64,000 bases of DNA from NCBI RefSeq assembly GCF_014042015.1, contig NZ_CP059493.1, positions 930,001 through 994,000 on the forward strand, given 5' to 3'. Origin of the DNA: Actinotalea sp. JY-7876 (lineage in GTDB: Bacteria; Actinomycetota; Actinomycetes; Actinomycetales; Cellulomonadaceae). The notes below the pieces were generated by a model that was not told the DNA's origin, ran no database searches, and saw nothing but the letters and a program-made list of their open reading frames with translations. Made by a program: the position numbers and the translations under genes. Positions 35,486 to 37,010 of this stretch are shown here, piece after piece. Each line of letters begins with the position of its first letter. Within the stretch, counting starts at the first letter, position 1.

Positions 35486-35669
35486 GGAGCCTCGTCCCGC
35501 GGAGCGGAGCGTCGTGCCGTTGCGCGGAGCGTCGTGCCCGCTGCGGAGCGCCGTGCCCGCTGCGGCGCCCGGTGCCGGAGCGTCGTGCCGTTGTGCGGAG
35601 TGTCGTGCCCGCTGCGGTGCGCCGTGCCCGTGTGCGGAGCGTCGTGCCGCCACCGTGGAGCGTCGTGCC
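35486..35669 (+). repeat. Left repeat array, ten GGAGCGTCGTGCC-type units
   Basis: Ten copies of a 13-base core in one orientation, starting at 35486, 35506, 35526, 35545, 35564, 35577, 35597, 35616, 35636 and 35657. Five are exact (35506, 35526, 35577, 35636, 35657); the others differ at one to four bases. Spacing is 19-21 bases except for one interval of 13. No gene is credible in this 370-base gap: the repeats read open in every frame as Cys/Arg/Ala-rich peptides only because of their composition. Confidence 0.88.
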
Positions 35670-35702
35670 GCGACATGCCGGCGTGTCCCGGCACCACGCT
35701 CC
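35657..35702. repeat. Left inner palindrome of the repeat module
   Basis: The last forward unit (35657-35670) faces a reverse unit (35689-35702), forming a 14-bp stem with one mismatch around an 18-base loop. A closely similar sequence lies on the other side of the nuclease gene at 36820-36869. Confidence 0.75.
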
Positions 35703-35752
35703 GCGCTCGGAGAGGGCGGCACGGTGTGGGGCTACCGGGTGGATCGCACGGG

Positions 35753-35777
35753 CTGTGGAGGACGGCGTCGTCCACAG
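35753..35777. promoter_or_regulatory. 25-base near-perfect palindrome upstream of the nuclease gene
   Basis: CTGTGGAGGACG-G-CGTCGTCCACAG: 12-base arms with a single mismatch, ending 51 bases before the ATG. Its place and symmetry suit an operator for a winged-helix regulator, possibly the gene's own product. The outer TGTGGA/TCCACA halves also resemble parts of DnaA boxes. Confidence 0.5.
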
Positions 35778-35828
35778 GCGCTCGAGGCCCTCCCGCGGCG
35801 CGTAGGCCCGGTGCCCGACCCTGTCGGC

Positions 35829-36779
35829 ATGACCCCTGCCGTGTCCCTCGCCGTCGAACGGTCGAGCCGTGCCCGACGCGCTCGCGGCCCCGTGCTCGTC
35901 CCGCTCCGACGGGGCGTCTGGGCGCCGGCCGGCACGGACCCGACGGACGCGGACCTACGGATCGCGGCGGTCGCGGCGCAGCTGCCGGCCCACGCCGTCG
36001 TCGGCGGGTGGGCGGCAGCACGGCTGCACGAGGTGACGGCGGGCGGGCGGGACCCGGTCTTCGACGGCGGGCCGCGGTGGGAGGAGAGGCCGATCGGCCG
36101 CGGGCGGTGCGCGCGCGTGCTCGTCTGCGCCGCGCGTGACAGCAGGCTCACCCACCGGCCGGACGTGCGCGTGTTCCGGAGCCCTGTCCCCGACGGCCAG
36201 CGCGAGCGCGTCCTCGGGATGACCGTGGCGTCCGCGGTACGGTCGGCGTTCGACATGGCGCGACTGCTTCCCGTGACGTCGGGGGTCATCGCCGTCGACC
36301 GGATGCTGGCGCTGCGGCTGATGACGATCGACGACCTCGCCCTGCTCGTCGCCGCCCCGGGCAGGTGGCAGGGAAGGCCGGCCGCGCGCCGCGTGCTCAC
36401 GCTGTGCGACGCCGGCGCCGAGTCACCGCAGGAGTCGGTGCTCAGACTGCTCTGGGTGGGCGCCGGGCTGCCACGTCCGCGTGCCAACGTCGAGGTCCTG
36501 GACCGGGACGGCCGCTTCGTGGCCCGCGTCGACCTCCTCGACCCGGATGCCGGCGTCGTGGCGGAGTACGACGGCGGCTACCACTCGGGCAGCGATCGCC
36601 GCAGCCGGGACGCCGCCCGGCAGGAGACGCTCGAGCGGCTGGGACTCGTCGTCGTGCGTGCCACGTCGGTCGACCTGGAGGACGGGGGTGCGCGCGCCTG
36701 GCAGATGCGACTGCGGGCGGCCTACGGCCGTGCGGCACGCCGACCGGGTGACGAGCGCCGCTGGGTCATCGGCCCCTGA
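35829..36779 (+). CDS. DUF559 nuclease-like protein with AbiEi-like N-terminus
   Basis: A 316-residue protein. Residues about 20-130 resemble the AbiEi antitoxin/winged-helix region of many actinobacterial proteins (LRRGVWAPAG; LPAHAVVGGWAAARLHEV). The C-terminal third is a DUF559/Vsr-like PD-(D/E)xK domain: Glu202 (SPQESVLRLLW), Asp235 (ARVDLLDPD), Glu246 and Asp248 (VAEYDGGYH), then a helix-strand ending LGLVVVRATSVDL. The acidic residues are all kept, so it may cut DNA, but family function is unknown. ATG 35829 is chosen because upstream in-frame starts fall within the repeat array. The gene is bracketed by short repeats in opposite orientation. Confidence 0.82.
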   Translation: MTPAVSLAVERSSRARRARGPVLVPLRRGVWAPAGTDPTDADLRIAAVAAQLPAHAVVGGWAAARLHEVTAGGRDPVFDGGPRWEERPIGRGRCARVLVCAARDSRLTHRPDVRVFRSPVPDGQRERVLGMTVASAVRSAFDMARLLPVTSGVIAVDRMLALRLMTIDDLALLVAAPGRWQGRPAARRVLTLCDAGAESPQESVLRLLWVGAGLPRPRANVEVLDRDGRFVARVDLLDPDAGVVAEYDGGYHSGSDRRSRDAARQETLERLGLVVVRATSVDLEDGGARAWQMRLRAAYGRAARRPGDERRWVIGP

Positions 36780-36819
36780 GGTCGCCGCAGGCGCCGGGGA
36801 CCGCCCCGCGCCGGCCAGC

Positions 36820-36869
36820 GTGGAGCCTCGTGCCGCGACGCGCCGGCGTGTCGGCGCACGCCGCTCCAC
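36820..36869. repeat. Right inner palindrome of the repeat module
   Basis: GTGGAGC (36820-36826) pairs with GCTCCAC (36863-36869), with further pairing inside. The first 30 or so bases match the left palindrome at 35655 apart from three differences. It begins 41 bases after the nuclease stop. Confidence 0.7.
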
Positions 36870-36875
36870 GGTCGG

Positions 36876-36983
36876 GGCACGACGCTCCGCACGGGGCACG
36901 ACGCTCCGCACGGGGCACGACGCTCCGCACGGGGCACGACGCTCCGCACGGGGCGCGACGCTCCGTACACGGGACAGCGCTCC
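36876..36983 (-). repeat. Right repeat array, exact 19-base period, opposite orientation
   Basis: GGCACGACGCTCC, the reverse complement of the left core, starts at 36876, 36895, 36914 and 36933 (all exact) and 36952 (one mismatch), with a degenerate copy near 36971-36983. The period is exactly 19 bases. It fills the gap between the nuclease gene and the end of sdhB, which run toward each other. Confidence 0.9.
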
Positions 36984-37010
36984 GCGCTCGGGACGACGGC
37001 CCGGAGCGGC

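What the first reader, a model, noticed from the sequence alone, without database searches (positions are those of the whole stretch)
35486..36983. Nuclease-like gene bracketed by two repeat arrays in opposite orientation
Seen: ten copies of a 13-base core (GGAGCGTCGTGCC) lie upstream of the DUF559/AbiEi-like gene, all on the plus strand with about 19-20 base spacing. Downstream are about six copies of its reverse complement with an exact 19-base period. The gene-proximal end of each array is a palindrome of one forward and one reverse unit. I noticed the core nowhere else in the window. Inference: gene and repeats may be one module, either a selfish element whose nuclease recognises the repeats (compare RAYT/REP systems), a set of operator sites for the winged-helix part, or a source of small structured RNAs.
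Basis: partly seen in the sequence, partly recalled or inferred. Interest (0 to 1): 0.85.

Follow-up and report, generated by a model that had tools for sequence, protein, structure and literature searches.

The report
Nuclease gene bracketed by cognate palindromes
A small DNA-cutting-enzyme-like gene in this bacterium sits between two copies of a palindromic DNA repeat that is also scattered through the genome, and most of its relatives examined in other Actinobacteria sit between palindromes of their own, which suggests a gene-plus-repeat partnership that I found described nowhere.

Summary
In detail: 9 exact cores in the window against 0.04 expected. The repeats are not unique to this gene. 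They are a dispersed palindromic family (a head of about 46-60 bp, usually with a tail of half-site repeats): 44 exact cores genome-wide.

The link to the gene is nevertheless specific. It encodes an AbiEi-like/DUF559 (Vsr-type PD-(D/E)XK) protein. Of 19 genomes of the genus, the 7 with a close homologue are the only ones with four or more repeat matches. Matching flanks bracket most examined members of the protein family, often with different palindromes: 46 of 63 loci against 1 of 40 shifted controls, and 47 of 75 named loci against 0 of 300 swaps, at E<=1e-10. Two further families are dispersed in the genome with the gene and nearly absent from the other genomes searched. In one relative 21 copies are 61-62 bp with sharp ends, and their arms co-vary.

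Best reading: a REP/RAYT-like system built on a nuclease unrelated to Y1 transposases. Palindrome recognition is likely; nuclease-driven spread is inferred. Nine paper searches found no description.

The parts
35486..35648 (+). tail of the upstream element: direct array of the 13-bp half-site, mostly at 19-21 bp steps, pointing to the palindrome
35649..35709 (-). head of the upstream element: palindrome (core pair 35657 + / 35690 -), with the tail on its left
35829..36779 (+). AbiEi-like/DUF559 (Vsr-type PD-(D/E)XK) protein, 316 aa (P0001); D235, E246 and D248 are the conserved residues taken as the active site
   Evidence: start codon chosen, not proven
36815..36875 (+). head of the downstream element: palindrome (core pair 36822 + / 36855 -), with the tail on its right
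36876..36985 (-). tail of the downstream element: five reverse half-sites at exactly 19 bp, then decayed units

Best explanation
The gene and its two bracketing palindromes form one compact unit (palindrome, about 100 bp, gene, about 15 bp, palindrome). The protein recognises its own family's palindrome through an AbiEi-like N-terminal region (inferred: AbiEi proteins bind inverted repeats). Its Vsr-type nuclease domain nicks or cuts at the palindrome, perhaps as a hairpin or cruciform. Repair or replication then copies the palindrome to new intergenic sites and occasionally moves the gene with it. This is the layout of a RAYT/REP 'REPtron', made with an unrelated enzyme. Shown: the bracketing, the dispersal, the match between gene and repeat across genomes, the conserved putative active-site residues, the gene at different sites and the empty sites. 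Inferred: binding, cutting and copying.
For: Bracketing: matching flank sequence at E<=1e-10 in 46 of 63 homologue loci against 1 of 40 controls; match in both orientations at E<=1e-5 in 40 of 63 against 0 of 40. Named set: E<=1e-10 in 47 of 75 against 0 of 300 swapped pairs; both orientations at E<=1e-5 in 42 of 75 against 2 of 300; without 7 loci already in the first set, 40 of 68. Geometry in 48 loci with E<=1e-8: 5' element a median 108 bp before the start, 3' element a median 15 bp from the stop, within 83 bp in 44 of 48. Dispersal of cognate palindromes: 23 heads in G000 and at least 25 in G030 (my count from the list); own paralogue family 24 places in G000 and none in 18 congeners; L082 family 12 places in G080, 1 in its congener G060, none in 12 others. 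Presence match: 11 of 12 genomes with a close homologue (E<=1e-40) have 4 or more R1 matches, against 5 of 107 without. Similar proteins have similar palindromes: rho 0.205, 0 of 1000 permutations. Movement: the gene lies beside ligT in 6 of 19 genomes; in 9 ligT and sdhB are only 8-103 bp apart; G011 has two facing elements there without a gene, and its gene, again bracketed, lies at a site that is empty in G008 and G017. G030 copies: 20 of 21 exactly 61 bp, sharp ends; 98.5% of cells paired, 32 compensatory cells against 11 shuffled, 0 of 500. Putative catalytic residues conserved: D235 98%, E246 97%, E202 95% of 63. No Y1_Tnp match in the genome.
Against: No biochemistry. 15 of 63 loci show no bracket at E<=1e-8, among them the close homologues in G061, G074 and G090, whose genomes do hold 4-6 R1 matches. 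At laxer cut-offs the flank test loses power: E<=1e-5 50 of 63 against 9 of 40, E<=1e-3 60 of 63 against 27 of 40. G065 has a homologue and a bracket but no R1 match. Five genomes without a close homologue have 10-24 R1 matches (G051, G053, G062, G081, G089), not examined, and eight more have 1-3. In G000's own family arm covariation is weak: score 9 of 500 shuffles as high, and several pairs are unpaired in 6-8 of 17 copies. No consistent target-site duplication in 21 G030 copies. No structure could be predicted. Relatedness of genomes is not removed from the association or the similarity test. P0001's own domain matches are weak.
Confidence: 0.6

Rival explanations
1. The palindromes are operators. 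The AbiEi-like part is a repressor that controls its own gene through the upstream palindrome and other genes through the dispersed ones; the nuclease domain has another job.
For: AbiEi and Rv2827c autoregulate by binding 23-bp inverted repeats in their promoters (PMC7319586, passages). The upstream palindrome ends a median 108 bp before the start codon. Half-sites recur at 18-22 bp, about two helical turns: 31% of 184 elements against 5% shuffled. L082 copies hold four nearly invariant 10-bp sites.
Against: A second palindrome lies within 83 bp of the stop codon in 44 of 48 bracketed loci. Of 57 classed places (those flanking the genes included), convergent gaps, which hold no promoter, are over-represented (19 of 57 against 7 of 59 window gaps, p 0.007) and divergent gaps are not (6 of 57 against 6 of 59). 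Operators do not explain clean 61-bp copies with co-varying arms.
Confidence: 0.2
2. The palindromes are 3'-end elements (terminators or RNA stabilisers) spread by something else, and the gene merely tends to insert between them.
For: Location next to stop codons: within 80 bp in 13 of 13 R1 clusters; convergent gaps over-represented. They can fold into hairpins (z -1.9 and -3.2 for the two window heads, -8.3 and -14.1 for two others). REPs have the same location (PMC3733652, passages).
Against: Different protein subfamilies have different palindromes, and similar proteins similar ones. The two families searched are absent or nearly absent from other genomes. Gene-to-palindrome distances are too regular for random insertion.
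Confidence: 0.1
3. A defence system: the nuclease attacks foreign DNA and the palindromes mark or protect self, or hold the enzyme.
For: PADLOC AbiEi models match the N-terminal half of paralogues (E 7e-12 for L015 and 7e-14 for L016). A DUF559 Vsr-like protein of Caulobacter is linked to a DNA methyltransferase (PMC12907096, start of abstract and one passage).
Against: P0001 itself matches defence models only marginally (E 0.006 or worse). The neighbours are a 2'-5' RNA ligase family gene and an iron-sulfur protein gene with sdhB-like domains, not a methyltransferase or toxin. Palindrome numbers seem far too low to protect a 3.5-Mb genome (inference).
Confidence: 0.07

Closest known systems
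RAYT/REP systems (REPtrons; TnpA-REP)
   Same: Gene bordered by two palindromes of one family, gene usually single-copy, palindromes dispersed between genes near 3' ends, palindromicity kept by complementary changes (PMC2817692, PMC3733652, PMC8266576: passages)
   Different: Protein is of the DUF559/Vsr-type PD-(D/E)XK kind with an AbiEi-like N-terminus, not a Y1/HuH transposase; no Y1_Tnp match in the genome. Palindromes longer (about 46-76 bp in those read), in some families built of half-sites about 20 bp apart, without a GTAG foot in the three families looked at. Actinobacteria.
AbiEi antitoxins (type IV TA, AbiE)
   Same: N-terminal similarity in paralogues; inverted repeats upstream of the gene
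   Different: Fused to a nuclease domain, no toxin gene next to it here, a second palindrome downstream, dispersed copies
Vsr / DUF559 / MTES_1575 nucleases
   Same: Conserved D...ExD residues and domain matches
   Different: No title or abstract start among the 14 held papers that name DUF559 mentions such a repeat link (listing; passages of one read)
BOX elements and MITEs
   Same: Short non-autonomous modular repeats with a variable number of inner units (recalled)
   Different: No transposase with matching ends was identified; the bracketed gene encodes a different enzyme type

Membership tests
RAYT/REP | Y1/HuH tyrosine transposase related to IS200/IS605 | tested here: not met
   no PF01797 match (E<=0.001) in the genome; 5 of 14 control genomes ring; Pfam finds DUF559/MTES_1575-like
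[quoted passage not shown]
   flanked in 48 of 63 loci at E<=1e-8, but best match inverted in 26 and direct in 22 of these (orientation of a near-perfect palindrome is ambiguous); inverted at the window locus
RAYT/REP | cognate palindromes dispersed between genes | tested here: met
RAYT/REP | GTAG or CGTC tag at the foot of the palindrome | tested here: not met
   by eye only: no such tag at the foot of the G000, G030 or G080 copies
AbiE toxin-antitoxin | AbiEi-like DNA-binding domain | tested here: inconclusive
   P0001: AbiEi E 0.022; paralogues to E 7e-14
AbiE toxin-antitoxin | adjacent AbiEii nucleotidyltransferase toxin | tested here: not met
   neighbours are a 2'-5' RNA ligase family gene and an Fer2_3/Fer4 (sdhB-like) gene
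PD-(D/E)XK / Vsr-type nuclease | conserved catalytic acidic residues | tested here: met
   D235 98%, E246 97%, D248 92%, E202 95% of 63; D235 and E246 invariant in 39; their catalytic role is assigned by analogy
PD-(D/E)XK / Vsr-type nuclease | three-dimensional fold | not tested
   structure prediction not available; nearest PDB profile match an endonuclease-like protein at E 0.02
DDE-type insertion sequence or MITE | target-site duplication | tested here: inconclusive
   21 G030 copies: one has a 4-bp match, none a longer one; old copies could have lost it

The most novel reading that the evidence does not exclude
AbiEi-like/DUF559 proteins are the enzymes of a widespread, independently evolved class of REP-type systems in Actinobacteria. 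Each protein recognises and spreads its own palindrome family with a Vsr-type nicking nuclease instead of a Y1 transposase, and one genome can hold several such pairs side by side.
Probability: 0.55. Interest if true: 0.9.

Novelty: new variant of a known kind. Interest (0 to 1): 0.84.

Why it matters
Many of the actinobacterial genomes searched encode several DUF559/AbiEi-like proteins of unknown role, and their palindromes lie unexplained between genes. If the pairing is causal it gives both a job, shows that REP-like dispersal evolved with a second enzyme type, and offers dozens of matched protein/DNA-site pairs whose predicted binding and cleavage can be tested directly. It also bears on the open question of how REP-type repeats move.

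Tried and rejected
Repeats exclusive to this gene: rejected. RAYT in the same genome: no match. Known RNA family: no match. PHROG (phage) families: no match for three of the proteins. Single-protein search of genome contigs found no relative; the alignment query worked. Hairpin-type covariation: weak in G000's family, strong in G030. Two earlier counts on A4 used a wrong inner register (corrected). DUF559 remnant between the two elements at G011's ligT site: only chance-level matches (E 0.6-0.7). Homologues of L090 on plasmids: 4 of 72,556 records, none covering 80% of the query. Foreign base composition of the gene: none obvious. Divergent gaps avoided by the elements: not so against the window's own gaps.

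Full report
OBSERVATION. The window (64 kb of a 3.55-Mb single-contig genome) holds nine exact copies of GGAGCGTCGTGCC, against 0.04 expected in shuffles, all around one gene. With mismatches allowed they form two arrays in opposite orientation, each ending on the gene side in a 46-bp palindrome (forward and reverse cores 33 bp apart). The genome is probably an Actinotalea relative: contigs of its congeners G008, G011 and G013 have the same lengths as named Actinotalea records, and one of G014 the length of a Cellulomonas sp. record. The window's own record is not named.

THE ELEMENT. The core occurs 44 times exactly in the genome. I fetched 12 further places: 11 hold palindromes or clusters, and one (L023) is an isolated core inside a called gene. 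They share one design: a palindromic head (consensus CGAGCGTGGAGCGTCGTGCCGCGACACGCCGGCGTGTCGCGGCACGACGCTCCACGCTCG) and usually a tail of half-sites, mostly on one side, typically spaced 21, 20, 19, 19... bp. Counting from the list, 23 heads lie in the genome, in 15 clusters including the two at the gene; at most 45 candidates were scored, so this is a floor.

GENE. 35829-36779 encodes 316 aa. Pfam gives a sub-threshold DUF559 match; relatives give MTES_1575, AbiEi_4 and PADLOC AbiEi matches. In 63 homologues D235, E246, D248 and E202 are 92-98% conserved. dN/dS to the G011 homologue (72% identical) is about 0.21 (dN 0.19, dS 0.89), so the protein is kept under selection. At the shared ligT site the G008 homologue is far more diverged at silent sites (dS 0.91, near saturation) than the neighbouring ligT (0.38), as expected if the gene has been replaced there.

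GENOME-LEVEL ASSOCIATION. A covariance model of 17 heads (R1) was run on 119 genomes (both strands of a palindrome count) and the protein on the same genomes in two parts (59, 60). Taking E<=1e-40 as a close homologue, 11 of 12 genomes with one have four or more R1 matches, against 5 of 107 without (Fisher 5e-11); eight more of the 107 have 1-3 matches. Within the genus it is 7 of 7 against 0 of 12; G002, among the 12, has 2 matches. Relatedness of genomes is not corrected for. The exception with a homologue is G065, whose gene is bracketed by a different repeat. The five genomes with many matches but no close homologue are G051, G053, G062, G081 and G089; their matches were not examined.

BRACKETING AS A GENERAL RULE. 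A self-comparison of 33 homologue loci showed matching, mostly palindromic repeats on both sides of most, with sequences that differ between subfamilies. As a test I compared the upstream and downstream 1.5 kb of 63 homologue loci and of 40 control loci shifted 20 kb along the same contigs. Matches at E<=1e-10 occur in 46 of 63 against 1 of 40; matches in both orientations (the mark of a palindrome) at E<=1e-5 in 40 of 63 against 0 of 40. Laxer cut-offs discriminate less (E<=1e-5 50 of 63 against 9 of 40; E<=1e-3 60 of 63 against 27 of 40). Some controls lie near elements or other DUF559 genes by chance (for example L113); they were kept. In 79 named loci from a second source (Cellulomonas, Nocardioides, Mycobacterium, Hoyosella, Kineococcus and others) 75 had enough flank: 47 match at E<=1e-10 against 0 of 300 swapped pairs, and 42 match in both orientations at E<=1e-5 against 2 of 300. 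Four of five further homologues fetched later also show matching flanks; the fifth lies near a contig end. Not bracketed: 15 of 63 at E<=1e-8, including the close homologues L061, L062 and L063, where R1 finds no flanking element either. In a tree of 34 proteins the 30 bracketed ones are spread over all deep branches.

MODULE GEOMETRY. In the 48 loci with E<=1e-8 the 5' element ends a median 108 bp before the chosen start codon (quartiles 87 and 183) and the 3' element begins a median 15 bp from the stop (quartiles -2 and 37; 44 of 48 within 83 bp; in the rest the best match is a more distant copy). The best flank match is inverted in 26 and direct in 22. Half-sites recur at 18-22 bp in 31% of 184 elements against 5% shuffled. 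Ten copies of the G080 family share four 10-bp sites (CGAGATCGAC and its complement; each base the same in at least 9 of 10), the two in each arm 20 bp apart.

COGNATE DISPERSAL. The palindrome of an own-genome paralogue (L015) occurs at 24 places in G000 and in none of 18 congeners. The palindrome of L082 occurs at 12 places in G080, once in a congener and in none of 12 other genomes. More similar proteins have more similar palindromes (Spearman 0.205, 0 of 1000 permutations; 48 loci, relatedness not removed). The four homologues of G000 lie on three branches (L015 and L016 are sisters, 57% identical) and have different flanking repeats.

MOVEMENT. ligT (LigT-type domains) lies near sdhB (Fer2_3/Fer4 domains) in the genus. 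The gene with its flanking elements lies beside ligT in 6 of 19 genomes (G000, G008, G009, G013, G014, G017), with sdhB seen on the other side in the four whose stretch reaches it; in 9 genomes the ligT and sdhB matches are only 8-103 bp apart; three have about 1 kb of something else that I did not examine. G011 has no gene there but two facing elements in 575 bp. Its homologue lies between an AlkZ-like glycosylase gene and a SpoIIM gene, again bracketed, and these two genes are 58 bp apart in G008 and about 50 in G017. Loss and regain are not excluded, but the bracketed gene has occupied different sites.

CLEAN COPIES. In G030 (another genus of the family; protein 52% identical) I read 21 of the 24 dispersed copies in the list, and the one beside the gene. 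Located by their end motifs, 20 of the 21 are exactly 61 bp and one is 62; identity drops at once outside. On 21 aligned sequences (20 dispersed copies plus the gene-flanking one; the 62-bp copy left out; 20 distinct) 98.5% of cells pair, seven pairs change on both sides, and 32 cells are compensatory against 11.2 in shuffles (0 of 500 as high); slid structures score at most 0.048 against 0.157. So palindromicity is maintained, by selection on a hairpin/cruciform or by copying between arms. Outer flanks are C-rich on the left and G-rich on the right, with no consistent target duplication. In G000's own family the evidence for pairing is weak.

WHERE COPIES SIT. With a simple codon-usage gene finder of my own I classed 59 places, those flanking the genes included: 15 clusters (R1, G000), 13 of 24 places (L015 family), 10 of 12 (L082 family) and 21 (G030). 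They are 19 convergent, 32 same-direction, 6 divergent, 1 at a stretch edge, and 1 overlapping a weak gene call. The window's own gaps are 7 convergent, 46 same-direction and 6 divergent of 59: convergent gaps are over-represented (p 0.007), divergent ones not avoided (p 1). Thirteen of 13 R1 clusters lie within 80 bp of a stop codon; in G030 the median of 17 measured distances is 16 bp. This resembles REPs (PMC3733652, passages).

MECHANISM. AbiEi and Rv2827c bind 23-bp inverted repeats in their promoters (PMC7319586, passages), so palindrome recognition by the N-terminal part is a fair inference. Vsr-type enzymes nick DNA (recalled), which would let a cell survive tens of target sites. I infer recognition of the palindrome, nicking at or near it, and copying during repair or replication. 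Only recognition has indirect support, from half-site conservation and protein/palindrome co-variation; nicking and copying are inferences from layout and conserved residues.

KNOWN OR NEW. The layout resembles that of REPtrons: gene bordered by palindromes, usually single-copy, palindromes dispersed (PMC2817692, PMC8266576: passages). The defining enzyme was not found and the bracketed protein is of another family, so this is not a member. Nine paper searches (listings) and passages of six papers showed no report linking DUF559 or AbiEi-like nucleases to dispersed palindromes; the library lacks most subscription journals and all bioRxiv preprints. I rate it a new variant of a known kind; proof that the nuclease spreads the repeats would make it a new class.

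Noticed in passing
L022:3842-4104 (G000:C1 about 1392.3-1392.6 kb): Degenerate tail units of the window's repeat family are amplified as an 83-bp tandem unit (four cores at 83-bp steps).
   Followed up: no
L014 (G000:C1:1283567): The fourth DUF559 homologue of the genome has inverted flank repeats that look like terminal inverted repeats rather than palindromes.
   Followed up: partly
L158/L159 (G080:C1:61753 and 62521): Two L082-family palindromes about 0.7 kb apart with no DUF559 match in L158/L159; possibly a bracket that lost its gene.
   Followed up: partly
G030 copies, L282-L301: Sequence around the 61-bp elements is C-rich before and G-rich after, as if they sat within older C...G inverted tracts such as terminators.
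   Followed up: no
G008:C75 and L034: G008 carries a high-scoring G000-type palindrome cluster although its own gene is flanked by a diverged type: perhaps a relic of an earlier resident gene.
   Followed up: no
window 35649-36875 palindrome centres: The centre consensus CGCCGGCG fits YGCCGGCR, the methylation site linked to the Caulobacter DUF559 protein VsrA (start of abstract); other families such as L082 and L090 lack it, so probably coincidence.
   Followed up: no
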